From Devosia sp. YIM 151766 (lineage in GTDB: Bacteria > Pseudomonadota > Alphaproteobacteria > Rhizobiales > Devosiaceae): a stretch of 64,000 bases of DNA. A program made the translations under genes and the position numbers. Within the stretch, counting starts at the first letter, position 1. The number at the start of each line of letters is the position of its first letter. Location of the stretch: NCBI RefSeq assembly GCF_030285925.1, contig NZ_CP127251.1, forward strand, positions 2,356,001-2,420,000, in the 5' to 3' direction. Positions 3 through 25,411 of the stretch are shown one piece after another. The notes under the pieces are model-generated. The model saw only the letters and a program-made list of their open reading frames with translations. It was not told where the DNA came from and ran no database searches.

Positions 3-1859
3 GCCAGCGGCAAGGGCGTGAAGCGCGGGCGTGGCACGAGCTTCGTGCGCGCCCGGAACATCTCCGGCCACTGGCATCATCGCCAGCCGGGCAGCCGCCG
101 CGTGATCGTCAAGCAGCGCAGCATCCGGGCCGCATGGAAGGGCGGCCGCGCCCGCGCACATCTGCGCTATGTCCAGCGCGACGGCACGTCACGCGATGGC
201 GAGCGCGGCAGGCTCTATTCGGCGACCGAGGACCGCGCCGATGGCGACGCCTTCCTTGATCGCGGCAAGGACGACCGCCACCAGTTCAGATTCATCGTCT
301 CGCCCGAGGACGGCGCGGAGTTGTCGGACCTCACGGCCTACACCCGCGATTTCATGAAACAGGTGGAAGCCGACCTCGGCACGAAACTCGATTGGGTCGC
401 CGTCAATCACTACAACACCGGCCATTCCCATGTGCATGTCATTGTCAACGGCCGCGACGATACGGGCGGGGATCTAGTCATCAATGGCGACTATCTGTCC
501 GCTGGCCTGCGCGAACGCGCCAGCGAGCTTGCCAGTCTGGAACTCGGCCCCGTCACCGAGATCGAGCAGACCCGCAAGCTGTCCGCCGAAATCGACCAAG
601 ACCGTTTCACCCGCATCGACCGCGCCATGGTCGAGGAAGCCGATGCCCGTTTCCTCGACCTGCGCCATGAACCGGCGGAGCCGAAGCGGCAGTTCGAGCG
701 GACGCTGCGTTTGCGCAGGCTCGGCAAGCTGGAGAAGATGGGGCTGGCGACCGAGCACGCGCCCGCCGTTTGGGAATTGAGCAAGGACATGGAGCCTGCC
801 CTGCGCGAGCTAGGCGAGCGTGGCGACATTATCCGCACCATGCAGAAGGCGCTCGGCCCGCAGGGAGGCGAACGCGATCCCATGAGCTTCCAAATCCATG
901 ACGGAGCGCCCGAGACGCCTATCGTCGGTCGCGTCGTGGACAAGCACCTGTCCGACGAGCTGGGGGAGAACCTGACCGTTGTGGTGGACGGGATCGACGG
1001 CCGCACGCACCACATCGCCGGCATCGCGCCCGAGCGGCTGGAGGATGTCCGCATCGGCAGCGTCATTGAGGTCGGCCCGGCCGAGGCCACGGCCCGACCG
1101 TCCGACCGCTCCATCACAGCCATCGCCGAGGACGGCATCTATCGGCCGAGCCGCCATCTGGAGCAGGCGAAGTTTGAGGGCCGCGTTCCGAGCGGCGACT
1201 ATGAGGGCTATGTCGATGCCCATGTCCGCCGACTGGAGGCGCTACGCCGGGCCGGGATCGTCGAACGCATCGACGCAGATCAATGGCGCATTCCCGATGA
1301 TCTGGTCAGCCGCGCCGCCGTCCATGACGCCGGCCGCGACCGGCAGGCCAGCGTTCGCGTCCTGTCCCCGTTCGATCTAGGCAAGCAGGTCGGATCGGAT
1401 GGCGCGACCTGGCTGGACCGGCGATTGGTCCATAGCGAAACGGACGATCTTGCGCCGGCCGGCTTCGGACAGCAAGTGCGTGAGGCGATGGACCAGCGCC
1501 GCGAGCATCACATCGAAGAGGGCGACGCTGCCCGAGCGCGGAACGGCCGCATCTTCTATCGGCGCAGCCTTCTCGCCACCTTGCGCGAGCGGGAGGTCGC
1601 CCGCGTCGGCGCGGAGATGGCCGAAAGGAAGGGGCTGCCGTTCCGCGCCGCCACGGACGGCGAGAACGTCAGCGGCAAGTTCACCGGCACCGTGCAGCTA
1701 TCGAGCGGCAAGTTCGCGGTGGTCGAGCAATCTCATGAGTTCACCCTTGTCCCTTGGCGGCCAGTCATCGACCGCCAGCTCGGCCGCGAGGTCATGGGCG
1801 TCGTGCAGGGCGGATCGGTGTTGTGGCAGCTAGGGCGGCAAAGGGGGTTGGGACTTTAG
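3..1859 (+). CDS. VirD2-family relaxase with DUF3363 domain, 5' end cut by the window
   Basis: This relaxase would nick the ICE at oriT and lead the transferred strand into the recipient. The reading frame is open from the first bases, so the annotated GTG at 18 is probably not the true start. Family members usually begin with a longer basic N-terminus. The three-histidine metal motif is seen as NTGHSHVHVIVNG at about residues 138-150 of the visible part. It is preceded by a likely catalytic-tyrosine region (LRYVQRDG) and followed by a long C-terminal domain of DUF3363 type. The last 105 bp are repeated at 3760-3864. The resistance cargo begins directly downstream. Confidence 0.9.
   Translation, partial: ASGKGVKRGRGTSFVRARNISGHWHHRQPGSRRVIVKQRSIRAAWKGGRARAHLRYVQRDGTSRDGERGRLYSATEDRADGDAFLDRGKDDRHQFRFIVSPEDGAELSDLTAYTRDFMKQVEADLGTKLDWVAVNHYNTGHSHVHVIVNGRDDTGGDLVINGDYLSAGLRERASELASLELGPVTEIEQTRKLSAEIDQDRFTRIDRAMVEEADARFLDLRHEPAEPKRQFERTLRLRRLGKLEKMGLATEHAPAVWELSKDMEPALRELGERGDIIRTMQKALGPQGGERDPMSFQIHDGAPETPIVGRVVDKHLSDELGENLTVVVDGIDGRTHHIAGIAPERLEDVRIGSVIEVGPAEATARPSDRSITAIAEDGIYRPSRHLEQAKFEGRVPSGDYEGYVDAHVRRLEALRRAGIVERIDADQWRIPDDLVSRAAVHDAGRDRQASVRVLSPFDLGKQVGSDGATWLDRRLVHSETDDLAPAGFGQQVREAMDQRREHHIEEGDAARARNGRIFYRRSLLATLREREVARVGAEMAERKGLPFRAATDGENVSGKFTGTVQLSSGKFAVVEQSHEFTLVPWRPVIDRQLGREVMGVVQGGSVLWQLGRQRGLGL
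1755..1859 (+). repeat. Relaxase 3'-end repeat, copy 1 (native end of the relaxase gene)
   Basis: These 105 bp, stop codon included, recur at 3760-3864 with exactly the same length. The first ~64 bp differ by one base and the last third is more divergent. Both copies encode the same peptide start (WRPVIDRQLGREVMGVVQGG) and each has its own stop. The divergence suggests that the second copy came from a related relaxase allele and not from a recent simple duplication. Confidence 0.85.
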
Positions 1860-1940
1860 AGCACCTGAAACGGCGTTGCGACACCGGCGCTATTCGGATA
1901 GGAGATAGATATTCGTATTGCCAAGTGTGGAGCTATCAGC

Positions 1941-1970
1941 ATGGGAAACGCTAAGTCAGCAGACAAGTAA
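1941..1970 (+). CDS. Leader peptide of the floR attenuator (MGNAKSADK)
   Basis: A nine-codon ORF with a GGAG Shine-Dalgarno sequence eight bases upstream encodes MGNAKSADK. It closely resembles the cmlA leader peptide MSTSKNADK that mediates chloramphenicol-inducible translational attenuation: the K-x-A-D-K ending and stop position are the same. A 12-bp perfect hairpin starts at the very next base after the stop codon, as expected for a ribosome-stalling attenuator. The match to cmlA is from memory of that leader; the ORF and hairpin are read directly. Confidence 0.75.
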   Translation: MGNAKSADK

Positions 1971-1999
1971 GCCGCAACAACAAGCACTGTTGTTGCGGC
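1971..1999 (+). promoter_or_regulatory. Attenuator hairpin upstream of floR
   Basis: GCCGCAACAACA pairs perfectly with TGTTGTTGCGGC around a 5-base loop. The stem begins directly after the leader-peptide stop codon. It lacks a following U-run, so it is more likely a translational or message-stability attenuator than a rho-independent terminator. floR starts 79 bases downstream with only a weak ribosome binding site. Confidence 0.75.
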
Positions 2000-2077
2000 G
2001 TTCTGTAAGATCAATCCCAATCTGATTGTTGACGAGCAGACGCCGCCCGGAATCTTTAATCGAGCGGTTGATTCGTC

Positions 2078-3292
2078 ATGACTATCACACGCCCCGCGTG
2101 GGCCTATACGTTGCCGGCAGCCCTGCTGCTGATGGCTCCCTTCGACATCCTCGCGTCACTGGCGATGGATATTTATCTCCCCGTCGTCCCAGCGATGCCC
2201 GGCATCCTAAACACGACGCCATCCATGATCCAGCTCACGTTGAGCCTCTACATGGTCATGCTCGGCGTGGGACAGGTGATCTTTGGCCCAATATCGGATC
2301 GCATCGGGCGACGGCCGATCTTGCTTGCGGGTGGGGCGCTTTTCATCGTCGCTTCTCTCGGAGCGGCATGGTCGTCAACGGCCGCAGCCTTCGTCGCTTT
2401 TCGCCTGCTACAAGCGGTCGGCGCGTCGGCGGCGTTGGTAGCGACGTTCGCGACGGTTCGCGACGTTTATGCCAGCCGCCCCGAGGGTGTCGTCATCTAC
2501 GGTCTTTTCAGTTCGATGCTGGCCTTCGTGCCCGCCCTTGGCCCCATCGCCGGAGCACTGATCGGCGAGTTTTTCGGATGGCGGGCGATATTCGTCACGC
2601 TGGCTGCACTTGCGTTGCCTGCACTCTTGAACGCCGGTTTCAGATGGCACGAAACCCGCCCCTCGGATGAAGTAAACACACGCCGTTCCGTTTTGCCTAT
2701 CTTCGTGAGTCCAACCTTTTGGGTTTACACGGTCGGCTTTAGCGCTGGCATGGGCACCTTCTTCGTCTTCTTCTCGACAGCCCCCCGAGTGCTCATAGGC
2801 CAAGCCGATTATTCCGAAATCGGGTTCAGTTTGGCTTTCGCCACTGTCGCACTCGCCATGATTGTGACAACCCGTTTCGCGAAGTCCTTTGTAGCCAGAT
2901 GGGGCATTGCGGGATGCGCGGCGCGTGGGATGGCGTTGCTCGTTTGCGGGGCGATTCTGTTGGGAATCGGTGAATTTTTCGGCTCACCATCGTTCCTCAG
3001 CTTCATCCTGCCAATGTGGGTAATGGCAGTCGGTATTGTCTTCACGGTGTCCGTCACCGCCAATGGTGCTCTCGCACAGTTCGACGACATCGCAGGATCG
3101 GCAGTCGCCTTCTATTTCTGCGTCCAAAGCCTGATCGTCAGCATCGTCGGGACACTAGCGGTAACGCTGTTGAACGGAGATACGGCTTGGCCCGTGATCT
3201 GTTACGCCACGACGATGGCGATGCTAGTTTCGACGGGTCTTGCGCTACTTCGATTCCGTGACGTTCACGCCGAGAGGTCGCCGGTCGTCTGA
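2078..3292 (+). CDS. floR: Chloramphenicol/florfenicol efflux MFS transporter FloR
   Basis: The 404-aa protein has the exact length and nearly the sequence of FloR, a 12-TM drug:proton antiporter of the Bcr/CflA group that exports chloramphenicol and florfenicol across the inner membrane. Recognisable features are the N-terminal MTITRPAWAYTLPAALLLM, the MFS loop motif GPISDRIGRRPILLAG (about residues 70-85) and the C-terminal KSPVV-like end (here RSPVV). Scattered substitutions relative to the FloR of Salmonella SGI1 are visible (for example EFFGWRAIF), so this is a variant allele. The start at 2078 is fixed by an in-frame stop just upstream. An attenuator leader precedes it and a lysR remnant follows 28 bp downstream. 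Confidence 0.95.
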   Translation: MTITRPAWAYTLPAALLLMAPFDILASLAMDIYLPVVPAMPGILNTTPSMIQLTLSLYMVMLGVGQVIFGPISDRIGRRPILLAGGALFIVASLGAAWSSTAAAFVAFRLLQAVGASAALVATFATVRDVYASRPEGVVIYGLFSSMLAFVPALGPIAGALIGEFFGWRAIFVTLAALALPALLNAGFRWHETRPSDEVNTRRSVLPIFVSPTFWVYTVGFSAGMGTFFVFFSTAPRVLIGQADYSEIGFSLAFATVALAMIVTTRFAKSFVARWGIAGCAARGMALLVCGAILLGIGEFFGSPSFLSFILPMWVMAVGIVFTVSVTANGALAQFDDIAGSAVAFYFCVQSLIVSIVGTLAVTLLNGDTAWPVICYATTMAMLVSTGLALLRFRDVHAERSPVV

Positions 3293-3320
3293 CCGGCGAC
3301 TGGCAGGACGGTCGGCACCC

Positions 3321-3759
3321 ATGCGGCGCACCCGTCATCGCAGCTTCATGAATGGCGGTATCCTGTCCGGCAGGATACCGCTCATTTCCCTTGTTCAGTT
3401 CATGGCCGTTGCCGAGCATCTGAATTTTCGGCACGCGGCCAACGCGCTCGGCGTCAGTCAGTCGAGCGTCAGCGCGCGCGTGAAGGCGCTGGAGAAAATC
3501 TTGGTGTCCTGCTGTTCGAGCGCCATGCGCGATGCGTCCGGCTAACGGATGCAGGCAGACATTTCATGGAGCTGGTCGCGGTGGGCGTCGATCAGCTCGA
3601 TCACGCCGTCAAGACCGCCGACATGACAGCGCAAGGCGAATGCGGCCGGCTACGCATCGGTGTCTATGCCCTGATTCCGGGCAGCTTCCTTGCAGAGCTG
3701 GTCGGCCAGTATCGGAAGGACCATCCCAATCTCGACATCGAAATCACGGAGGGCACCGC
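3321..3759 (+). pseudogene. Truncated and frameshifted LysR-family regulator (copy 1)
   Basis: The first part (from MRRTRHRS) matches the N-terminal HTH of the two other LysR genes in the window (LNFRHAANALGVSQSSVSAR). Compared with those copies, one base is missing near 3491-3500 just after KALE, which throws translation into a stop at 3543. The correct frame resumes downstream as VDQLDHAVKTAD. The homology ends abruptly at ITEGTA (about 3759), where the relaxase 3'-end repeat begins. The effector-binding domain is therefore mostly lost and the gene should be inactive. It lies directly behind floR in the same direction. Confidence 0.85.
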
Positions 3760-3864
3760 TGGCGGCCGGTCATCGACCGCCAGCTCGGCCGCGAGGTCAT
3801 GGGCGTCGTGCAGGGCGGATCGGAATCGTGGCAACTCGCGCGGCAGAGGGGGATAAGCCTCTAA
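3760..3864 (+). repeat. Relaxase 3'-end repeat, copy 2
   Basis: This orphan copy of the relaxase C-terminal coding end is fused behind the truncated lysR and runs to its own stop (TAA at 3862-3864), which touches the last codon of the convergent tetR(G). It marks the left edge of the tet module in the same way that the real relaxase end marks the left edge of the floR module. Confidence 0.85.
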
Positions 3865-4487
3865 TCTGTTGTAGATGAACGTAGCCGCTCGAAACCGGTG
3901 ATGAGGCTGTCAAGTCCGAAGTTGAACGCAGCATCTATGCCTTCTGTTTCCAACTCGTGAAACAGATCGTGCAGGAAGGACGATGCTGCCTGCCCGGACA
4001 CATCTGATCTGTCCGACATTCTCTCATCGGCATCAGATGCCTGCTGCTCGAGAACGGAACCGACCACATAGTGACTGACCGCCCGGAGCGCCCAAACAGC
4101 GTGCTTCGGACCAAAGCCCGCCGCGCAGAGAAAGCGTATTTGTGTCTCGGCAGTGCCAAAATTCGGTTCTGTCGGTCGAGTGCCGGCATGGATGCGCGCC
4201 CCGTCGCGATAATAGAGCAACGCCGTTCTGAAACTCTGGGCGTTCTCTTTCAGGAATAGCCGCCAGTCTTCGTTCTCTTCGGGTAGCGAGCGGGTGTGGC
4301 GTTCCGTCAACATCGCCTCCGCAAGTGCGTCAAGCAGCGCGCGCTTGCTCTGGAAATGCCAGTAAAGCGCAGGCTGCTGAACCTTGAGGCGTTCAGCGAG
4401 CTTTCGCGTCGTCAGGTTGTCCATGCCAACCTCGTTCAGCAGCTCCAGCGCCGCTGCGATCACGGTGCCTTTGTCCAGTTTGGTCAT
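3861..4487 (-). CDS. tetR(G): Tetracycline repressor TetR, class G
   Basis: The 208-aa protein matches class G TetR from end to end: an N-terminal helix-turn-helix (TTRKLAERLKVQQPALYWHF, about residues 25-45) and the tetracycline-binding TetR_C domain containing HAGTRPTEPNFGTAE. It represses itself and the divergent tetA(G) by binding two operators in the 104-bp gap between them, and releases DNA on binding tetracycline-Mg. Its stop overlaps the end of the relaxase-tail repeat, so the acquired segment joins ICE sequence almost exactly at the end of tetR. Confidence 0.95.
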   Translation of the reverse strand: MTKLDKGTVIAAALELLNEVGMDNLTTRKLAERLKVQQPALYWHFQSKRALLDALAEAMLTERHTRSLPEENEDWRLFLKENAQSFRTALLYYRDGARIHAGTRPTEPNFGTAETQIRFLCAAGFGPKHAVWALRAVSHYVVGSVLEQQASDADERMSDRSDVSGQAASSFLHDLFHELETEGIDAAFNFGLDSLITGFERLRSSTTD

Positions 4488-4515
4488 TCACGTTCCTCTG
4501 CCAGTGCTTGACAAT

Positions 4516-4558
4516 TTATCAACGATAATTTCTATGTCTATGTTCTTATCATTGATAA
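4516..4558. promoter_or_regulatory. Paired tet operators between tetR(G) and tetA(G)
   Basis: Two palindromes, TTATCAACGATAA (4516-4528) and TTATCATTGATAA (4546-4558), have centres 30 bp apart in the divergent promoter region. They have the arrangement and core (TATCA..GATA) of tetO1/tetO2, the binding sites of the TetR repressor. A TTGACA-like -35 element (TTGACAATT) overlaps the first one. Confidence 0.85.
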
Positions 4559-4591
4559 AGTCGCTCGCATTGAGCGGCGCTGGAGTTTCAG

Positions 4592-5767
4592 GTGCGCAGC
4601 TCTGCCATCATCGCCCTGCTGATCGTCAGTCTCGACGCCATGGGACTCGGCCTCATCATGCCGGTCCTTCCGACGCTTCTGCGCGAGCTTGTGCCGGCGG
4701 AACAGGTCGCTGGTCACTATGGTGCTTTGCTGTCACTCTATGCGTTGATGCAGGTCGTCTTCGCGCCCGTGCTTGGAAAATTTTCAGATGCTTACGGCCG
4801 GCGTCCGGTGCTTCTGGCTTCTCTTGCGGGGGCCGCAGTCGATTACACGATTATGGCATCAGCGCCGGTCTTATGGGTTCTCTATATCGGCCGACTCGTT
4901 TCTGGCGTCACGGGAGCAACCGGAGCCGTAGCTGCCTCAACCATTGCCGATTCGACGGGGGAAGGTTCTCGCGCACGCTGGTTCGGCTACATGGGGGCCT
5001 GTTATGGAGCAGGCATGATTGCCGGGCCAGCACTTGGTGGCATGCTCGGTGGTATTTCTGCCCATGCTCCGTTTATCGCCGCTGCCCTTCTCAACGGCTT
5101 CGCGTTCCTGCTTGCCTGCATTTTTCTCAAGGAGACTCATCACAGCCATGGCGGGACCGGAAAGCCGGTTCGCATCAAACCATTCGTTCTGTTCCGGCTG
5201 GATGATGCATTGCGCGGGCTAGCTGCGCTTTTCGCAGTCTTCTTCATTATTCAACTGATCGGCCAAGTGCCTGCGGCCCTATGGGTCATCTATGGCGAGG
5301 ACCGTTTTCAGTGGGACACCACGACTGTTGGTTTGTCGCTTGCGGCATTTGGAGCAACACATGCGATCTTCCAAGCGTTTGTTACCGGCCCGCTTTCAAG
5401 CCGGCTTGGAGAGCGGCGCACGCTACTCTTTGGCATGGCTGCGGATGCGACTGGCTTCATTCTTCTGGCTTTTGCCACGCAGGGATGGATGGTGTTCCCG
5501 ATTTTGTTGCTGCTTGCCGCCGGAGGTGTTGGCATGCCGGCCTTGCAGGCAATGCTTTCAAACAATGTCAGCAGTAACAAGCAAGGAGCTTTACAGGGAA
5601 CGCTTACAAGCCTCACCAATCTAAGCTCTATCGCGGGACCGCTTGGCTTCACGGCACTCTATTCTGCCACCATAGGAGCATGGAACGGTTGGGTTTGGAT
5701 TGTCGGCGCGATCCTCTATTTAATATGTCTGCCAATACTACTCAGACCTTTCGCAACTTCATTGTGA
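4592..5767 (+). CDS. tetA(G): Tetracycline efflux transporter Tet(G)
   Basis: The 391-aa MFS protein starts at GTG with MRSSAIIALLIVSLDAMGLG, as class G does, and has the motif GKFSDAYGRRPVLL in the first cytoplasmic loop (about residues 65-78). It exports the tetracycline-Mg complex in exchange for protons and should span the membrane 12 times. The length is exactly that of Tet(G), with a few substitutions, so it should be functional. It is divergent from tetR(G), and an intact lysR follows 20 bp after its stop in the same direction. Confidence 0.95.
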   Translation: MRSSAIIALLIVSLDAMGLGLIMPVLPTLLRELVPAEQVAGHYGALLSLYALMQVVFAPVLGKFSDAYGRRPVLLASLAGAAVDYTIMASAPVLWVLYIGRLVSGVTGATGAVAASTIADSTGEGSRARWFGYMGACYGAGMIAGPALGGMLGGISAHAPFIAAALLNGFAFLLACIFLKETHHSHGGTGKPVRIKPFVLFRLDDALRGLAALFAVFFIIQLIGQVPAALWVIYGEDRFQWDTTTVGLSLAAFGATHAIFQAFVTGPLSSRLGERRTLLFGMAADATGFILLAFATQGWMVFPILLLLAAGGVGMPALQAMLSNNVSSNKQGALQGTLTSLTNLSSIAGPLGFTALYSATIGAWNGWVWIVGAILYLICLPILLRPFATSL

Positions 5768-5787
5768 TTGAGTCATGGCGAATTGGT

Positions 5788-6774
5788 ATGCGTAGACTTA
5801 CGAGGAATGACGGATTAAATCCGTTGAGCCATCATCTCCTCTCGGGGCGAGTGCCGATGATGACCTTAGTTCACACTCTCGCCGTCGCCGAATATCTGAA
5901 CTTCCGCCACGCCGCCAATGCGCTCGGCGTGGCGCAATCCAGCGTCAGCGCCCGCGTGAAGGCGCTGGAAGAAGACCTTGGCATCCTTCTGTTCGAGCGC
6001 CATGCGCGGGGTGTTCGGTTGACCGAGGCTGGACGCCACTTCGTCGAGCGGATAGCCGCAGGCATCGACCAACTCGACCATGCGGTGAAGACCGCCGGCA
6101 TGGCGGCAGCCGGAGAAAGCGGCCGGCTTCGCATCGGTATCCATGCCCTGATCCCTCGCAGCTTCCTCGCAAAGCTGATCGGCCAATACCGCGAAGACCA
6201 CCCCGGCGTTGAAGTCGAAATGACCGAAGGCACAGCCCGCGAAGCGGTGATGCAGCTTCGCGCCGACCGGCTGGACGTGGTGTTCGTCGCCGGCACGCCC
6301 GAGTTGCCCGACTGCCATTCCCGCCGCATATGGACCGAACCGCTCTTGGCGGTGTTACCGGAGCAGCATCCGCTCGCCGAGCGGTCGGCCGTTACATGGG
6401 CCGATCTGGCGGGCGAGACGTTCCTTGTTCGGCATGGCGGCACCGGCCCGCAGGTTCATAGCCATATCGTGCTGCGCCATGCCGGACGCTGGCCCGCGCC
6501 GTCGATCCTGCGCTTCGACGTGGGGCGCGGCGCGCTGCTGTCCATGGTCGGACAGGGCTTCGGCATCACCATCGTCGGGGCCGCCTCGGCGCTGTTGCCG
6601 ACAACCGGCATTGTCTTCCTGCCCTTCGCCGATGAGCCCGAGCCGGTCGCCTTCTCGGCTGTCTGGTCGCCGTCCAACCGCAGCGCCGCGCTGCGCAACC
6701 TGCTCACGGTCGCCAGCGACATGGGCCGGCAGGTCTGCACGAATTCAGTACCGCCACGGATAGCGAGGGCGTGA
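5788..6774 (+). CDS. LysR-family transcriptional regulator (copy 2)
   Basis: This is a complete LysR protein of about 328 aa: HTH near residues 25-60 (LNFRHAANALGVAQSSVSAR) and a LysR substrate domain (RLRIGIHALIPRSFLAKLIG onward). The start at 5788 gives MRRLTRN, matching the MRR beginnings of the other two copies; an alternative is ATG 5857. It is very similar to the gene at 8739-9737 over most of its length, but its last ~20 residues differ, which suggests a recombination junction near the 3' end. The regulated gene is unknown. It lies 20 bp behind tetA(G) and may be co-transcribed with it. Confidence 0.85.
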   Translation: MRRLTRNDGLNPLSHHLLSGRVPMMTLVHTLAVAEYLNFRHAANALGVAQSSVSARVKALEEDLGILLFERHARGVRLTEAGRHFVERIAAGIDQLDHAVKTAGMAAAGESGRLRIGIHALIPRSFLAKLIGQYREDHPGVEVEMTEGTAREAVMQLRADRLDVVFVAGTPELPDCHSRRIWTEPLLAVLPEQHPLAERSAVTWADLAGETFLVRHGGTGPQVHSHIVLRHAGRWPAPSILRFDVGRGALLSMVGQGFGITIVGAASALLPTTGIVFLPFADEPEPVAFSAVWSPSNRSAALRNLLTVASDMGRQVCTNSVPPRIARA

Positions 6775-6808
6775 GCCGAAGTGGTCGCGGAAGCACCGTC
6801 CGGGACTG

Positions 6809-8071
6809 TTATTGCCATCGCCGGAAAGCGACACTTGCATTAACGCCGCCAAAGCCGAATCCGTTGGAAATGGCATGTTCCATGAGAACGGGCCGCGCAG
6901 ATCGGTGAACTAGGTCGATACCTGCGGCAACAGGATCGGGGTTTTCTAAGTTTCTCGTGGGGGGAGCGATTTGATCCCGTAGGGCGAGTATCGTGAAGAT
7001 TGCCTCAATACCACCTGCGGCACCAAGTAGGTGCCCCGTCGCCGATTTCGTGGCGCTTACGGCCACATCATGATTGCCAAACACGGATTTTATCGCGGCA
7101 ATTTCTCCTCGATCTCCTACGGGAGTGGAGGTGGAATGAGCGTTCAAATGTTGAATATCGATTGGCTTCAACCCGGCACTCTGGAGCGCGATTTTCATCG
7201 CACGGGCCGCACCTCGACCGTCCTCTGGACCGGCAGTCATATGGTGTGCATCAGCGCTTGTGCCGTATCCCACCAATTCGGCTATGGGCGTGGCACCCCG
7301 AGCCAGGGCATGTTCCAATTCCTCTATGACGATCAGACCCGCCCCTTCGGACATTACGAAACCATCGCGCTCGGTGTCGAACGGCCTCGACGCCATTTCC
7401 GGCGTAGTATTGTACCCCATGGATAGTGCTCGCGCGGCAGCAAATGCCCCGAGACTAACCGTATCAATGCACGCTTCTGCCCCGCCGCACAGAGCGATGT
7501 CGGCTTCGTTGGAGCGTATCAGCCGCGCGGCGTCGCCGATGGCCTGAACGCTGGCAGCGCAGGCGGTTACAGGCGTGCCAATTGGGCCTGTAAATCCATA
7601 CCTGATGGTAACCTGTCCCGCCGCGAGGTTGGCAAGAAACGATGGTACGGTAAACGGTGATAGCCTCCGTGGCCCCCGAGTGTCGGTTATGCGAACTGCC
7701 GAAGCGATAGCGGGAAACCCGCCTATACCAGAAGCAATAATCGTTGCTGTGCGCTCAAATTCGTAGTCGCTCGCGGGATGCCATCCCGCCGTTTCAAGAG
7801 CCTCCTTTGCGGCCGCAAGTGCAAACAGAATGAAGCGATCCATTTTTCGTTGATCCTTTGTGTCAACGATCAAATCGGGATCGAAACCGGCTTCGGAATC
7901 TTCAATCAGGCTAGGAACGAGTCCCCCGATTTTCACTGGTAGATTGCTGGAAATTTCATCAGGCAATGTTCTAATGCCTGATTTTCCATCAAGGAGTCTG
8001 TTCCAGCTTATTTCAGCCCCGGAACCAAGAGGGCCGACTAAACCCATGCCGGTCACAACAATTCGACGCAT
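6809..8071 (-). CDS. Beta-ketoacyl-ACP synthase II (FabF-like), ICE cargo
   Basis: The 420-aa condensing enzyme extends acyl-ACP with malonyl-ACP in fatty acid synthesis. The full catalytic set is present: Cys171 in VTACAASVQAIGDAA, His312 in LNAHSTSTP, and Lys342/His347 in TKSATGHLLGAAGG, so it should be active. The sequence type (ACAASVQAIGDAARLI, NAHSTSTPVGD) looks more like betaproteobacterial or actinobacterial KAS II than the usual alphaproteobacterial FabF (NAHGTST). It sits in an operon behind an HxlR regulator, four bases apart. A second FabF on a resistance ICE could act as a bypass for FabF inhibitors (thiolactomycin, cerulenin or platensimycin types); this is inference. Confidence 0.85.
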   Translation of the reverse strand: MRRIVVTGMGLVGPLGSGAEISWNRLLDGKSGIRTLPDEISSNLPVKIGGLVPSLIEDSEAGFDPDLIVDTKDQRKMDRFILFALAAAKEALETAGWHPASDYEFERTATIIASGIGGFPAIASAVRITDTRGPRRLSPFTVPSFLANLAAGQVTIRYGFTGPIGTPVTACAASVQAIGDAARLIRSNEADIALCGGAEACIDTVSLGAFAAARALSMGYNTTPEMASRPFDTERDGFVMSEGAGLIVIEELEHALARGATPIAELVGYGTSADAHHMTAGPEDGRGAARAMKIALQSAGLKPIDIQHLNAHSTSTPVGDRGEIAAIKSVFGNHDVAVSATKSATGHLLGAAGGIEAIFTILALRDQIAPPTRNLENPDPVAAGIDLVHRSARPVLMEHAISNGFGFGGVNASVAFRRWQ

Positions 8072-8075
8072 TGGA

Positions 8076-8585
8076 TTATTCCGCTCCTTTTTCTGAGCTT
8101 ATCCGCTTCACGCGGTTTATGACGCGCATCGTTTCTTCCGTTGCCGCTGGGCCTGCTAGAAGAACCGTGTTTTCAGGAGTGATTTTTTCTCCAGTATCCG
8201 CATCGACTATGATGGCGTTTCGTTCCCTACCAGTTTCCCTGTCGCCAAGGCGCATGGCTATTTCATTGGGCGCAAGGTTCCGGTTTCCCCATGCGAACAG
8301 GGCGATTGCTACCGGATAGAAATCTCGCCCTTTGTCGGTAAGGACGTATTCAAATCGAGGCGGATGATCATTGTATCGTTGCCTTTCAAACAACCCTTCG
8401 GCTGTGAGATGTTTCAATCGCCTCGCCAAAATGTTCGCGGAAATACCGAGATTCTTCTCGAATTCATCGAATTTGCTCAACCCTTGGAAGGCGTCCCGCA
8501 GGATCAAGATGCTCCACCAGTCACCGACGCTTTCCAGCGCTCGGGCTGCGGGACACTCTAATGACAGAAAGCTTGTTCGTTGCAT
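8076..8585 (-). CDS. HxlR-family winged-helix transcriptional regulator
   Basis: The 169-aa protein begins with the typical HxlR pattern: CPAARALESVGDWWSILILR followed by FDEFEKNLGISANILARRLKHL and YVLTDKGRDFYPV. There is a C-terminal extension of about 60 residues. HxlR proteins often sense reactive electrophiles or quinones and regulate neighbouring genes. It precedes the fabF-like gene by four bases on the same strand, so it probably controls its own operon. A near-perfect 17-bp palindrome lies 20 bp upstream of its start. Confidence 0.88.
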   Translation of the reverse strand: MQRTSFLSLECPAARALESVGDWWSILILRDAFQGLSKFDEFEKNLGISANILARRLKHLTAEGLFERQRYNDHPPRFEYVLTDKGRDFYPVAIALFAWGNRNLAPNEIAMRLGDRETGRERNAIIVDADTGEKITPENTVLLAGPAATEETMRVINRVKRISSEKGAE

Positions 8586-8605
8586 GACACATCCATAATG
8601 GTGTA

Positions 8606-8622
8606 ACTTCCATCATGCAAGT
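8606..8622. promoter_or_regulatory. Candidate HxlR operator
   Basis: ACTTCCATCATGCAAGT is an inverted repeat that is symmetric at all but two base pairs plus the centre. It lies between hxlR and the downstream lysR, in the expected promoter position of hxlR. Binding is inferred from position and symmetry only. Confidence 0.45.
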
Positions 8623-8738
8623 CACTTGTGCGTAGTAGGCGACATAGAGGGAGGGGCAATCCAATGCGTCATTCTAAGGAAGCCAAGCAACTGCGTCCGC
8701 TACGGCGTGCAATGAAGCACTGTAGTGGCATTTGAGCG

Positions 8739-9737
8739 ATGCGACGGCGGCGATCAGCACCGATGAATGGTTGCCCATGGGGCGTGCCGACCACGCTCGG
8801 ATCGCGTATCCCCCTCGCATCGCTGATCCAGACGCTTGCCGTCGCTGAGTATCTGAACTTCCGCCACGCGGCCAATGCGCTCGGCGTGGCGCAATCCAGC
8901 GTCAGCGCGCGCGTAAAGGCGCTGGAGGAAGACCTTGGCATCCTTCTGTTCGAGCGGCATGCTCGGGGCGTGCGACTGACTGAGGCCGGACGCCACTTCG
9001 TCGAGCGGATAGCGGCCGGCGTCGATCAGCTCGACCATGCGGTGAAGACCGCAGGCATGACGGCGGCAGGGAAATGGGGTCGTCTGCGCATCGGTATCCA
9101 TGCCCTGATCCCCGGCAGCTTCCATGCTGATCTGATCGCACAATACCGGGAAGACCATCCCGGCATCGAGATCGAGATGATCGAAGGCACGGCCCGCGAC
9201 GCGGTGATGCAGCTTCGCGCCGACCGGCTCGACGTGGCGTTCGTCGCCGGCAAGCTTGAATTGCCCGACTGCCATGCCCGCCCGATCTGGACTGAACCGC
9301 TGGTGGCGGTGCTGCCGGAACAGCATCGCCTTGCCGGGCAGGCGGCTATCACATGGGCCGATCTGGCCGGCGAGACCTTCCTTGTCCGCTATGGCGGCAC
9401 TGGCCCGCAAGTCCACGACCATATCGTGCTGCGCCATGCCGGACGCTGGCCTGCGCCGTCGATCCTGCGCTTCGATGTGGAGCGTGGAACAATGTTGTCC
9501 ATGGTCGGACAGGGTTTCGGCATCACCATCGTCGGCGCGGCCACGGCGCTGCTGCCGACGACCGGAATCGTCTTCCTACCTTTTGCGGATGAACCAGAGC
9601 CGGTTGCCTTTACCGCTGTCTGGTTGCCGTTCAATCGCAGCGCCGCGCTGAAAAACCTGCTCAACCTTGCAAACAATATGAGGCGTTTCGGCGATTCGCC
9701 CGGCCAGTTGCGCGATGGCGACCACTCGGCCGGATAA
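8739..9737 (+). CDS. LysR-family transcriptional regulator (copy 3, next to traG)
   Basis: The 332-aa LysR protein has an N-terminal HTH (LNFRHAANALGVAQSSVSAR, about residues 40-60) and a complete substrate-binding domain with the conserved end (FLPFADEPEPVAF). It is closely related to copies 1 and 2 and starts with the same MRR. Its place just before traG is the likely original position of lysR in this ICE type, which makes the other two copies products of module addition. Its ligand and targets are not known. Confidence 0.85.
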   Translation: MRRRRSAPMNGCPWGVPTTLGSRIPLASLIQTLAVAEYLNFRHAANALGVAQSSVSARVKALEEDLGILLFERHARGVRLTEAGRHFVERIAAGVDQLDHAVKTAGMTAAGKWGRLRIGIHALIPGSFHADLIAQYREDHPGIEIEMIEGTARDAVMQLRADRLDVAFVAGKLELPDCHARPIWTEPLVAVLPEQHRLAGQAAITWADLAGETFLVRYGGTGPQVHDHIVLRHAGRWPAPSILRFDVERGTMLSMVGQGFGITIVGAATALLPTTGIVFLPFADEPEPVAFTAVWLPFNRSAALKNLLNLANNMRRFGDSPGQLRDGDHSAG

Positions 9738-13488: not shown

Positions 13489-13817
13489 TCCGCACGATTT
13501 CGCGCGGCTATCGCCGCATGGCGACCGCCGCATCCATCCTTGCCATCAGTCTCATGCTCGCCCCGGCCGCCCATGCGTCGGGATCGTCGATGCCGTGGGA
13601 GCAGCCGCTTCAGCAAATCCTTCAGTCCATCGAGGGGCCGGTTGCCAAGATCGTCGCCGTCATCATCATCATCGCCACCGGCCTCACGTTGGCTTTCGGC
13701 GATACCAGCGGCGGGTTCCGCAGGCTGATCCAGATCGTGTTCGGCCTCAGCATCGCCTTCGCGGCGTCGAGCTTCTTCCTGTCGTTCTTCTCGTTCGGCG
13801 GCGGGGCGCTCGTTTGA
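13485..13817 (+). CDS. trbC: Pilin TrbC (VirB2-like)
   Basis: The 110-aa protein has a signal peptide ending near APAAHA (about residue 32) and two hydrophobic helices, the layout of TrbC/VirB2 propilin. It would be processed and assembled into the conjugative pilus. It overlaps trbB by four bases and its stop overlaps the ATG of trbD by one base, so translation is coupled. Confidence 0.92.
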   Translation: MIRTISRGYRRMATAASILAISLMLAPAAHASGSSMPWEQPLQQILQSIEGPVAKIVAVIIIIATGLTLAFGDTSGGFRRLIQIVFGLSIAFAASSFFLSFFSFGGGALV

Positions 13818-23301: not shown

Positions 23302-23684
23302 CCACATTGAAAGTTGGGATTGCCGGCTACGACGAGATGAAGGCCCGCACCATGCGGATCGCGCGCGGCGAGGAAAAGCCGGCGGCGGACGATCCGAAGG
23401 TGTGGTTCACATCAACCGAATCCTTCGCCAAGGTGCTGTCGGCCGGGAACCGCGAACTGCTGCGCGTCATCGCCGAGAAAGCTCCGGCCTCGCTGGAGGA
23501 ACTTTCGGAGATCACCGGCCGGGCCTTATCCAACCTGTCACGCACCATGAAGACGATGGAGAGCTACGGCCTTGTCCGCTTGGAGAAGGAAGGCCGCAAG
23601 CTCGCGCCCAAGGTTGTCCATGACCGTGTTGAACTGGCGTTGCCCTTGCTCGAACGCCGCGCGGCGAAAGGAGGCGCGCTATGA
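23298..23684 (+). CDS. tumA: HTH antitoxin of the TumE pair (HVO_A0114-like DNA-binding protein)
   Basis: The 128-aa protein has a MarR/ArsR-like winged helix (LEELSEITGRALSNLSRTMK, about residues 75-95), as in the HVO_A0114-type DNA-binding proteins that accompany TumE toxins. It likely neutralises the toxin and represses the operon. It overlaps the toxin gene and the recombinase gene by four bases each. Confidence 0.7.
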   Translation: MTTLKVGIAGYDEMKARTMRIARGEEKPAADDPKVWFTSTESFAKVLSAGNRELLRVIAEKAPASLEELSEITGRALSNLSRTMKTMESYGLVRLEKEGRKLAPKVVHDRVELALPLLERRAAKGGAL

Positions 23685-25411
23685 ACATTCATTCCCCACA
23701 CGTCGCCCTGCGCGCCGCGCTCTATCTGCGCGTCTCGACGGCGCGGCAAGCCGAGCATGACGTGTCGATCCCCGACCAGAAGCGGCAGGGCGAAGCCTAT
23801 TGCGAGTCTCGCGGTTATCAGCTTGTGGAAACCTTCATCGAGCCGGGCGCATCGGCGACCAACGACCGCCGCCCCGAGTTCCAGCGCATGATCGAAGCCG
23901 GCACGTCGAAGCCGCCAGCGTTCGACGTGGTGGTGGTGCATAGCTTCTCGCGGTTCTTCCGCGACGAATTTGAAATGGAATACTACTACCGGAAGCTGGC
24001 GAAGAACGGCGTCAAGCTCGTATCCATGACGCAGGAGCTTGGCGACGATCCGATCCACCAGATGATGCGGCGGATCATGTCACTGTTCGACGAATACCAG
24101 TCGAAGGAGAACGCCAAGCACGTCCTGCGCGCCTTGAAGGAGAACGCGCGGCAAGGCTTCTGGAATGGCTCGCTGCCGCCCATCGGCTACCGCGTCGTCG
24201 ATGCCGAGCAGCGCGGCACGAAGATGAAGAAGAAGCTGGAAATCGACCCGCTGCACGCCGACACCGTGCGGATGATCTTCCGCCTAGCATTGGAAGGCGA
24301 CGGCACGTCCGGCCCCATGGGCGTCAAGAACATCGTCAGCTACCTCAACAGGAACCGCATGTTCACCCGCAGCGGCGGACGTTGGGGCATCGGCCAGCTT
24401 CACCGCGTCCTGACCCGCCGCACCTATATCGGCGAACATCGGTTCAACCGCCGGTCCAAGAAAGGCGAGGTGAAGCCCGAGGAAGAAGTCGTCACCGTCG
24501 CGGTGCCGCCGCTGATCGACCTTGAGATATTCGAGGCGGTGCAGAAGCGGTTGCAGGTCAACAATCCGAAGGTGACGCCGCCGCGCGTCGTCAGCGGCCC
24601 GAACCTGCTGACCGGCATTTGCTATTGCGGCAATTGCGGTGGGGCCATGACGCTGCGCACGGGCAAGAACGGCCGCTACCGCTACTATGCCTGTTCGATC
24701 CGGGCACGGCAGGGCGAAACCGGCTGCAAGGGCCGCGCGATCCCGATGGACAAGCTGGACCGCATCGTGGTCAGCCACATCGAGGAAAGGCTGCTGGACC
24801 CCGAGCGGATCGAAGACGTGCTCGCCTCGCTGCTGGATCGCCGGCAGGAGAGCGTCGAGCGGCGCAGCCAGCACATCACCGAGTTGAACCAGCGCGCGGC
24901 CGAGGCCGATATGCGGCTAAAGCGGCTCTACGAGGCTATCGAGGCGGGTTCGCTCGACCCGGCCGAATCCGCCCTCGGCGAACGCATCGCGGGCCTTACG
25001 GCGATACGGGATCAGGCACGGGCCGACGCCGTAAGGACCGAGGCCATGCTGAAAAGCTCGGCCCATAAGGGCCTCACAGGCGCGGCCGTGCGGGAGCTGG
25101 CGAGCGAAGCGCGGACCGGGCTTCGGCTCGGAAAGGGCGGTTATCGGCGGGATCACGTCCGGGCTTTCGCCCAGCATGTCGAGGTCGCGGACGATGCGAT
25201 CTACATCAACGGCAGCAAAAACACGCTGTTGAGGGCGCTGATAGCCACAAAAGGAGGGAAATCGGCGGGAATCGGCGTTCCCGGTTTTATACCGAAGTGG
25301 CGGAGAGAGAGGGATTCGAACCCTCGAGACGGTTCCCCGCCTACACACTTTCCAGGCGTGCGCCTTCGACCACTCGGCCATCTCTCCGCGTCGCGCGTGT
25401 CTGGGCTATGA
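23681..25411 (+). CDS. Large serine recombinase (ICE integrase), C-terminus read through into tRNA-Ser
   Basis: The 576-aa recombinase has a resolvase domain with the catalytic serine in YLRVSTARQAEHDVSIPDQK (about residues 14-33), a Recombinase domain, and a zinc ribbon (ICYCGNCGGAM, near residue 310) followed by a coiled-coil region. It should catalyse integration and excision of the ICE. The last ~40 residues (from GFIPKWRRERDSNPR to LRPLGHLS) are encoded by the tRNA-Ser gene on the other strand, so the natural end of the free-element protein is probably different. It is coupled to the TA genes by an ATGA overlap. Confidence 0.93.
   Translation: MNIHSPHVALRAALYLRVSTARQAEHDVSIPDQKRQGEAYCESRGYQLVETFIEPGASATNDRRPEFQRMIEAGTSKPPAFDVVVVHSFSRFFRDEFEMEYYYRKLAKNGVKLVSMTQELGDDPIHQMMRRIMSLFDEYQSKENAKHVLRALKENARQGFWNGSLPPIGYRVVDAEQRGTKMKKKLEIDPLHADTVRMIFRLALEGDGTSGPMGVKNIVSYLNRNRMFTRSGGRWGIGQLHRVLTRRTYIGEHRFNRRSKKGEVKPEEEVVTVAVPPLIDLEIFEAVQKRLQVNNPKVTPPRVVSGPNLLTGICYCGNCGGAMTLRTGKNGRYRYYACSIRARQGETGCKGRAIPMDKLDRIVVSHIEERLLDPERIEDVLASLLDRRQESVERRSQHITELNQRAAEADMRLKRLYEAIEAGSLDPAESALGERIAGLTAIRDQARADAVRTEAMLKSSAHKGLTGAAVRELASEARTGLRLGKGGYRRDHVRAFAQHVEVADDAIYINGSKNTLLRALIATKGGKSAGIGVPGFIPKWRRERDSNPRDGSPPTHFPGVRLRPLGHLSASRVSGL
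25298..25387 (-). tRNA. tRNA-Ser(GGA), ICE integration site
   Basis: The minus strand reads GGAGAGATGGCCGAGTGG at the 5' end, has the anticodon loop CCTGGAAAGT (anticodon GGA), a long variable arm, the T-loop GGTTCGAATCC and the 3' acceptor TCTCTCC, discriminator G and an encoded CCA. The 7-bp acceptor stem is perfect, so the gene has been restored by the integration. The ICE joins its 3' end. Confidence 0.95.

What the first reader, a model, noticed from the sequence alone, without database searches (positions are those of the whole stretch)
1755..9737. Repeating cargo modules: [relaxase end]-[resistance genes]-[lysR]
The relaxase 3' end occurs twice (1755-1859 and 3760-3864, both exactly 105 bp) and a related lysR occurs three times (3321-3759 broken, 5788-6774, 8739-9737). 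The cargo genes (floR, tetR/tetA(G), hxlR/fabF-like) each lie upstream of a lysR copy. This looks like a slot between relaxase and lysR into which cargo from related ICEs has been stacked by homologous recombination in the conserved relaxase and lysR ends. No IS or ISCR transposase or integron is visible, so a transposase-free way of collecting resistance genes is suggested.
Basis: partly seen in the sequence, partly recalled or inferred. Interest (0 to 1): 0.75.

Follow-up and report, generated by a model that had tools for sequence, protein, structure and literature searches.

The report
Cargo dock of a mobile element
A mobile DNA element in this bacterium has a docking bay between two of its transfer genes where resistance genes are swapped between related elements, apparently by ordinary DNA recombination without a transposase, and a florfenicol-tetracycline resistance pair now found on clinical plasmids was likely assembled in such a bay.

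Summary
The lysR sits where traR sits in Tn4371-related ICEs. Relatives show a real cargo slot: 25 different first cargos behind 58 related relaxases. Nearly identical cargo sits behind relaxases about 9% different, with sharp identity switches at six or more positions in the relaxase and others in or near lysR and in traG. Cargo is linked mainly to the last 40 bp of the relaxase and to lysR, and little to the rest of relaxase and traG. That is the signature of homologous exchange. I favour homology-anchored illegitimate recombination that displaces old tail and cargo downstream; deletion between tandem ICEs is the main rival. No tested IS end lies in the slot. One such joint is on 97 of 72,556 plasmid records. 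New variant of a known kind; how these ICEs gain cargo was called "totally unknown" in 2024.

The parts
18..1859 (+). MOB relaxase (MobA/VirD2-like nuclease domain plus DUF3363); the frame is open at the window edge
   Evidence: Pfam DUF3363 E 4e-148 and Relaxase E 3e-5; open frame of 699 aa in the whole genome
1755..1859 (+). relaxase 3' end, copy that belongs to the full gene; its last ~40 bp (1820-1859) are the most cargo-linked
2078..3292 (+). floR, florfenicol/chloramphenicol exporter
   Evidence: 99% aa to floR of L004; annotated floR in plasmid relatives
3354..3382 (+). 13-pair hairpin between floR and the lysR fragment, just left of the lysR break point of the L045-type joint
   Evidence: z -5.9
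3361..3759 (+). lysR (traR-like) copy 1: 5' fragment, interrupted and truncated
   Evidence: intact relative next to floR in L127 (93%)
3760..3864 (+). orphan relaxase 3' end (second copy), starting at the joint
3861..4487 (-). tetR(G) repressor
   Evidence: annotation of relatives
4592..5767 (+). tetA(G) tetracycline exporter
   Evidence: annotation of relatives
5788..6774 (+). lysR (traR-like) copy 2; its 3' end runs into the third relaxase-end stub; start codon not verified
   Evidence: LysR domains
6744..6776 (+). stub of a third relaxase end (about 219 bp of it survive in L004/L009)
6809..8071 (-). FabF-like beta-ketoacyl-ACP synthase II (cargo)
   Evidence: NCBIfam PRK06333 707.6 bits, cut-off 525
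8076..8585 (-). HxlR/MarR-type regulator (cargo)
8739..9737 (+). lysR (traR-like) copy 3, directly upstream of traG; mosaic, identity switch near 8,900
   Evidence: 98.3% to 89.1% against L034
9868..11856 (+). traG/VirD4 coupling protein
   Evidence: annotated TraG in L005
12493..22268 (+). trb mating-pair genes (TrbB, TrbE, TrbL, TrbI among them)
   Evidence: TrbL and TrbI by Pfam, TrbE-type ATPase by Pfam; TrbB by synteny with L005
23681..25411 (+). large serine recombinase, presumed integrase at the right end of the ICE, overlapping tRNA-Ser (25298-25387, minus strand)
   Evidence: Pfam Resolvase, Recombinase, Zn_ribbon_recom; ARAGORN

Best explanation
The stretch between the relaxase gene and the lysR (likely the ICE regulator traR) is a cargo slot whose contents are exchanged between related ICEs by what the mosaic sequences show to be homologous crossovers in the flanking relaxase and lysR/traG genes, and extra cargo units were likely stacked by rare non-homologous joins that pushed the old relaxase tail and cargo downstream. 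Shown: diverse cargo in one place; nearly identical cargo behind divergent relaxases with sharp identity switches at scattered positions; cargo linkage concentrated in the last ~40 bp of the relaxase and in lysR; orphan relaxase ends at lysR/relaxase joints without long homology. Inferred: an incoming unit (relaxase end, cargo, traR) pairs with the recipient relaxase by homology at one end and joins by chance overlap at the other, just inside the recipient's relaxase tail, as proposed for Vibrio T6SS immunity arrays and orphan Rhs tips. Also inferred: each unit brings its own traR, so cargo transcription could feed ICE transfer. Later the ready-made floR-tet(G) array would have left the ICE with ISCR/IS elements.
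For: Exchange, left side: 69 locus pairs with cargo flanks at least 97.5% identical but relaxase bodies at most 95.5%; switches at 141, 291-320, 381, 705, 748-762 and 1,228 bp before the relaxase stop (each dLL above 26), weaker ones at 11-59 bp (dLL 11-21). Right side: 170 bp into lysR (window against L034, 98.3% to 89.1%, dLL 27.5), weaker at 272 and 446 bp in lysR (dLL 10-14), 969 bp (lysR-traG gap), 1,129-1,136 bp (about 60 bp into traG) and 1,897 bp (in traG). L079 lysR: 70 of 72 informative sites match L080 before position 13,800, 226 of 226 match L020 after it. Linkage: D +0.066 in the last 100 columns of relaxase and +0.207 at the lysR start, each reached by 0 of 1000 permutations, falling to about zero in traG beyond its first ~100 bp. 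Co-residence: 6 strains hold 14 of the 76 loci. Stacking: orphan relaxase ends in 22 of 71 sequences, and in a distant ICE (relaxase 45% identical, no lysR found) a 199-bp, 86% copy of its relaxase end between relaxase and traG. No tested IS end in the slot.
Against: No pair with a near-identical relaxase body and different cargo was found; the closest is 94.7%, so no very recent swap was caught. Of 18 non-terminal relaxase windows three show mild linkage (9, 43 and 40 of 1000), and in 20-bp windows linkage also appears at 1600-1659 (9-32 of 500) and 1740-1759 (4 of 500). In one search, 5 of 69 pairs place the switch in the cargo, and 4 (all with L049) at 1,662-1,701 bp with a poorly matching 5' part. 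In one search, 5 of 23 printed pairs switch the opposite way and one (L007-L011) reflects a truncated record. The window lysR3 pattern is noisy near 9,600, and other mosaics (L018, L072, L028) lack clean parents. The window joint has only about 0-2 bp of overlap; exact parents of any joint are unknown. HFIR is very rare where measured (3e-10 per recipient, PMC3240628 abstract). Some loci are MAGs (L074 among them), though the listed left-side switches can each be seen between isolates. A hairpin between floR and lysR1 could stop read-through into traR, and fabF/hxlR point away from lysR3.
Confidence: 0.66

Rival explanations
1. Tandem ICE accretion and deletion: two related ICEs sat side by side, and a deletion from lysR of the first into the relaxase end of the second removed one backbone and left both cargos in one slot.
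For: Gives the same order of parts in one step; six strains carry two or more of these ICEs (14 of 76 loci), in Kaistia adipata two on one contig about 70 kb apart, though in opposite orientation.
Against: The joints examined fall within about 220 bp of a relaxase stop and, where lysR is present, within it or within about 100 bp after it, although a deletion could end anywhere over tens of kb of backbone; this genome holds one full relaxase and one close traG (plus a 51-residue relaxase remnant at 0.97 Mb).
Confidence: 0.22
2. Circle integration: a circular molecule of relaxase end, cargo and lysR, closed by a chance join, integrates by one homologous crossover into the relaxase end of a resident ICE.
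For: Explains a repeated relaxase end bordering an added unit; single-crossover integration of circularised incoming DNA is reported in PMC3240628 (abstract).
Against: No free circle of this kind was looked for or seen; with a second repeat of only ~105 bp the crossover would have little homology.
Confidence: 0.13
3. IS- or ISCR-driven stacking: transposable elements moved the cargo in and were later lost.
For: An IS91-family element, IS6100 and IS1247 flank copies on plasmids; at least 2-3 of 63 cargo ORFs scanned in other slots carry transposase domains.
Against: The tested IS fragments have no more than 12-19 nt matches in the window slot (IS6100 not tested); the joints run directly from lysR to relaxase end; the identity switches lie inside relaxase, lysR and traG.
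Confidence: 0.05
4. Site-specific capture at a sequence in the relaxase 3' end, such as the hairpin at 1755-1780 where two different joints (window; L020/L079) start at the same base.
For: Two joints begin at TGGCGGCC and a third lies within about 12 bp; the fused copy folds into a hairpin (z -2.8).
Against: Other joints lie elsewhere (about 1641, near the stop, L084, L124); the native hairpin is not unusual (z -0.9); left crossovers scatter over 1.2 kb.
Confidence: 0.06

Closest known systems
Tn4371-family ICEs: accessory region 3 between traI and traR (PMC11448139; abstract, sections 3, 28, 36 and passages read)
   Same: Cargo lies before a LysR-type traR directly upstream of traG, reading towards traR in 30 of 32 ICEs of that paper; traR overexpression activated excision and transfer in ICEKKS102Tn4677.
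   Different: That paper says alphaproteobacterial relatives (types alpha-I, alpha-II) lack traR here and that how cargo is acquired is totally unknown. Here alphaproteobacterial ICEs do carry a lysR here, cargo is stacked with orphan relaxase ends, and a serine recombinase stands at the ICE end.
Tn4371-like ICE of P. aeruginosa TL1285 (PMC8256890; section 20 and passages read)
   Same: Variable region between traF and traR with floR and tetR-tetA-lysR cargo; a 13.7-kb insert between 695-bp direct repeats in sister strains.
   Different: No relaxase-end scars or exchange mechanism were described in what I read (the word relaxase does not occur in its main text).
SXT/R391 hybrid ICEs (PMC2786100; abstract read)
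   Same: ICEs gain new resistance combinations by inter-ICE recombination.
   Different: Other family; formation tested there depends on recA and ICE-encoded bet/exo homologues; no repeated relaxase-end/regulator units described in the abstract.
Vibrio cholerae T6SS immunity-gene arrays and orphan Rhs tips (PMC5361080; passages read)
   Same: Units swap by homologous recombination, and new units are proposed to be added by homology-facilitated illegitimate recombination that displaces older 3' ends downstream.
   Different: Chromosomal toxin loci there; here an ICE relaxase gene with resistance cargo.
floR-lysR units next to IS91-family elements (PMC11851438; passages read) and the SGI1 floR-tetR-tetA(G) cluster (recalled)
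   Same: Same gene order; L008 (P. aeruginosa plasmid) has the L045-type joint next to an IS91-family transposase.
   Different: That paper reads the lysR as a floR regulator and the gene as most likely gammaproteobacterial; the flanking relaxase end and traR position instead suggest a piece of an ICE slot.

Membership tests
Tn4371-family ICE | relaxase - cargo - traR (LysR) - traG - trb order | tested here: met
   window order; lysR within 1.3 kb before traG in 39 of 47 sequences with both ends visible; that this lysR is an orthologue of traR was not tested by sequence
Tn4371-family ICE | integrase related to int of Tn4371 (above 70% protein identity per PMC8256890) | tested here: not met
   no PF00589 match anywhere between 1.68 and 2.71 Mb, which includes the window and its surroundings; a large serine recombinase stands at 23681-25411
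Tn4371-family ICE | TraR activates excision and transfer | not testable with these tools
   needs expression and mating experiments
IS- or ISCR-bounded resistance transposon | transposase gene or IS ends at unit boundaries | tested here: not met
   no unassigned slot ORF of 90 aa or more; no long match to the tested IS91-family, sul2-neighbourhood and IS1247 fragments; IS6100 ends not tested
Integron cassette array | attC sites and intI | not tested
   no integrase gene among the slot ORFs; attC sites not searched
Displaced-tail array made by homology-facilitated illegitimate recombination | orphan 3' ends of the conserved gene in front of older cargo | tested here: met
   22 of 71 sequences; distant case L124
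Displaced-tail array made by homology-facilitated illegitimate recombination | homologous junction on one side and micro-overlap on the other within one event | tested here: inconclusive
   overlaps of ~0-2 and 5-7 bp; parents of one event not identified

The most novel reading that the evidence does not exclude
The 3' end of the ICE relaxase gene is a transposase-free capture dock: each capture swaps in a new relaxase tail, cargo and its own traR and pushes the older units downstream as an array with orphan relaxase tails, as with Rhs tips; alphaproteobacterial ICEs built the floR-tet(G) cluster this way before ISCR and IS elements carried it into clinical bacteria, and because every unit brings a traR, each drug's operon could call the whole element to transfer.
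Probability: 0.42. Interest if true: 0.8.

Novelty: new variant of a known kind. Interest (0 to 1): 0.63.

Why it matters
How Tn4371-related ICEs acquire cargo was called totally unknown in 2024 (PMC11448139). The scattered crossovers, cargo-linked relaxase tails and orphan relaxase ends give a concrete, testable answer for an alphaproteobacterial branch and suggest where the floR and floR-tet(G) units of clinical plasmids were put together. They also suggest that the lysR beside floR, read as a floR regulator in PMC11851438, is a transplanted ICE transfer regulator. The orphan relaxase end is a short, searchable scar for tracing resistance genes that came from such ICEs.

Tried and rejected
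Rejected: simple duplication of lysR inside one ICE (the copies' nearest neighbours in other genomes are mostly copies beside the same cargo, at least in the 5' third); a chance repeat; IS boundaries of the kinds tested; one fixed capture site (scattered joints and crossovers). A search for a repeat of the tRNA-Ser end within 20 kb upstream found nothing above chance, so the left ICE end is not placed. The idea that the conserved relaxase 3' block is a special site was not supported: the highest third-codon conservation lies elsewhere in the gene. A recent swap (same relaxase, different cargo) was looked for and not found. Passages of PMC10269605 (Brevundimonas with floR and ICE remains) added nothing. 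Structure prediction and the search for homologous proteins were not used.

Rows dropped before counts: one search left out plasmid loci L005-L011 and incomplete genes, then reduced 55 relaxases to 40 and 29 lysR-traG stretches to 24 by removing near-identical rows of the same cargo; one search printed only pairs passing two identity limits; one search compared 50 same-cargo pairs and printed 23 with cargo above 0.9 and traG end below 0.96; for one search left out 5 near-duplicate loci (L031, L032, L049, L074, L080) and ORFs under 110 aa, and one search showed only 25 of 63 families. One search returned 76 loci, one genome per species, found by two peptide patterns, so more distant relaxases are undercounted. 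Searches listed only part of their match-free genomes and part of its matches.
Full report
What is there. The window starts inside a relaxase gene (Pfam DUF3363 and MobA/VirD2-like nuclease) and continues floR, a broken lysR, a 105-bp second relaxase end, tetR(G)/tetA(G), lysR, fabF-like/hxlR, lysR, traG and trb genes. A large serine recombinase (23681-25411) overlapping tRNA-Ser marks the presumed right end of the ICE. The genome has one full relaxase of this kind (plus the 105-bp copy and a 51-residue remnant at 0.97 Mb) and one close traG. The host's order also holds G719, whose two relaxase coordinates equal those of Kaistia adipata loci L031 and L048, so the host is an alphaproteobacterium (inferred by coordinates).

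The repeats. The two relaxase ends are 87.5% identical over 104 nt, lysR2 and lysR3 84.7% over 857 nt, and the lysR1 fragment 74-75% to the others. The window also keeps a stub of a third relaxase end behind lysR2: P. paraeruginosa plasmids L004/L009, 97.5% identical to window 1755-6782, carry about 219 bp of relaxase end there. So each unit after the first starts with a relaxase end: [relaxase end - cargo - lysR] three times, with deletions.

The slot in relatives. A scan with the relaxase gave 76 loci. With the window, 71 sequences have a relaxase 3' end; 47 of these show traG after it; 39 of 47 have a lysR within 1.3 kb before traG (of the other 8, seven have hxlR there and one, L059, is empty with 182 bp between relaxase and traG); 24 of 47 are stacked by the criterion of two lysR or a second relaxase end; 22 of 71 carry an orphan relaxase end. 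Single-cargo forms exist: relaxase-floR-lysR-traG (L017, L029, L081), relaxase-tetRA(G)-lysR-traG with two more ORFs (L076), relaxase-TetR/RlmN-like-lysR-traG (L018). Among 58 complete relaxases (above 85% aa identity) there are 25 first-cargo groups. Cargo includes UvrA-like plus SDR (L013), EmrB-like MFS (L025, L083), GNAT acetyltransferases, methyltransferases, a weak bleomycin-binding-like protein (L036) and AHSA1 plus ArsR (L085); most of these matches are below family cut-offs and name a superfamily only. In 63 cargo ORFs scanned, transposase domains appear in 2 (DDE_Tnp_1) and 1 (DDE_5) members among the 25 of 63 families shown.

Exchange is homologous. In pairs with nearly identical cargo flanks the relaxase switches sharply from about 91% to about 99% identity at different positions (141, 291-320, 381, 705, 748-762, 1,228 bp before the stop; weaker at 11-59 bp); 69 pairs in all, not independent; five place the switch in the cargo and four, all with L049, show a poorly matching relaxase 5' part instead. 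On the other side switches lie 170 bp into lysR (window against L034, 98.3% to 89.1%), weaker at 272 and 446 bp, and 969 bp (lysR-traG gap), 1,129-1,136 bp (about 60 bp into traG) and 1,897 bp (inside traG) after the lysR match start; five of 23 printed pairs switch the other way. In L079 the lysR matches the RlmN-cargo locus L080 at 70 of 72 informative sites and then the GNAT-cargo locus L020 at 226 of 226. L074 looks like an L080-type ICE to which a tet unit was added by crossovers in floR and lysR (it is a MAG). By position, same-cargo pairs are no more alike than different-cargo pairs over most of the relaxase body (15 of 18 non-terminal windows) and over traG beyond its first ~100 bp, but they are in the relaxase end and in lysR, strongest at its 5' end. 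In 20-bp windows the last 40 bp of relaxase carry the strongest signal (0 of 500), with weaker signal at 1600-1659 and 1740-1759. A site-specific insertion would not give scattered switches; vertical descent would not give a free backbone. Six strains hold two to four of these ICEs (14 of 76 loci by record titles), which gives the opportunity.

Stacking joints are not homologous. Window joint: lysR (intact relative L127, 93% identical) to relaxase end, overlap about 0-2 bp. L045-type joint: the first ~40 bp of lysR to relaxase, overlap CTTGT to CCCTTGT. Others: behind the lysR stop to the same relaxase base as in the window (L004, L020, L079); lysR2 end to about 1641 (L004, L015, L045 and others); behind an RlmN-module lysR to about the relaxase stop (L010, L080, read by eye); L084; and in a distant ICE (G082/L124, relaxase 45% identical, no lysR match) a 199-bp, 86% copy of the relaxase end between relaxase and traG with ORFs on both sides. 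All of these lie within about 220 bp of a relaxase stop. This fits an incoming unit anchored by homology in the relaxase and joined by chance just inside the recipient's tail, leaving old tail and cargo downstream, as proposed for T6SS and Rhs arrays (PMC5361080 passages). Tandem ICEs with deletion remain a fair rival.

Spread. The L045-type joint (311-bp query) is found with at least 80% coverage in 97 of 72,556 plasmid records; of the 105 records with any match, 99 match at 99% identity or more, and 60 are Klebsiella and 13 Pseudomonas. It is in 4 of 5,426 E. coli genomes. floR in E. coli can keep the relaxase end and lysR: all 20 listed rows of 1,096 matching records begin at the relaxase end. 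Copies on plasmids have IS partners: IS91-family (L008), IS6100 (L004, L126, L127), IS1247 (L006, L010). This is why I think the pair was assembled in an ICE first; direction is inferred from the flanking ICE genes and from single-unit relatives, not dated. That the same cluster is in SGI1 is recalled, not tested.

Function. In ICEKKS102Tn4677 the traR in this position is co-transcribed with cargo and activates xis and transfer (PMC11448139; abstract, sections 3, 28, 36 and passages). If lysR2 starts at 5788, it follows tetA(G) by about 20 bp on the same strand. A drug that derepresses tetA(G) might thus raise TraR and transfer; untested. Against it: a strong hairpin follows floR, and fabF/hxlR point the other way.

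Literature. Searches (open-licence PubMed Central only) showed no paper whose title or abstract start in the listings describes relaxase-end scars or crossover mapping in this slot; full texts of most listed papers were not read, and subscription papers were not searched. The slot itself and floR-tet cargo in Tn4371-like ICEs are known (PMC8256890, PMC11448139).

Noticed in passing
L018:12610-13680 (also L010, L031, L049, L058, L074, L079, L080): A TetR plus RlmN/Cfr-family radical-SAM methyltransferase cargo unit. In L018 it scores below both the RlmN and Cfr cut-offs (275 of 290; 200 of 530 bits) and keeps CxxxCxxC and the ACGQL cysteine; in seven of the eight loci it lies upstream of floR: a candidate ribosome-methylation resistance gene.
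   Followed up: partly
window 6809-8585: FabF-like synthase with an HTH regulator as ICE cargo; could be target replacement against fatty-acid-synthesis inhibitors (speculation).
   Followed up: no
L094:10414-12846 (8-10 kb upstream of the relaxase): DDE_Tnp_1_4 transposase next to a pterin-binding (Sul/DHPS-type, 271 aa) gene, so an IS-linked candidate sulfonamide-resistance gene in the same region.
   Followed up: partly
window 1755-1780 and 3354-3382: Two different joints start at the same relaxase base, where a hairpin begins, and the L045-type joint lies just behind a 13-pair hairpin in the lysR leader; hairpins may favour the breaks.
   Followed up: partly
L094:6256-10384: Possible defence genes beside the ICE region: an AAA/ABC ATPase with DUF4435 and a protein with two SLATT effector domains.
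   Followed up: no
window 25298-25387: tRNA-Ser overlaps the 3' end of the serine recombinase gene; no repeat of it was found 20 kb upstream, so the left ICE end is further away or the att core is very short.
   Followed up: partly
G000:C1:973620-973772 (L090): A 51-residue relaxase remnant (65% identity, one stop) elsewhere in the chromosome, perhaps left by an older ICE.
   Followed up: no
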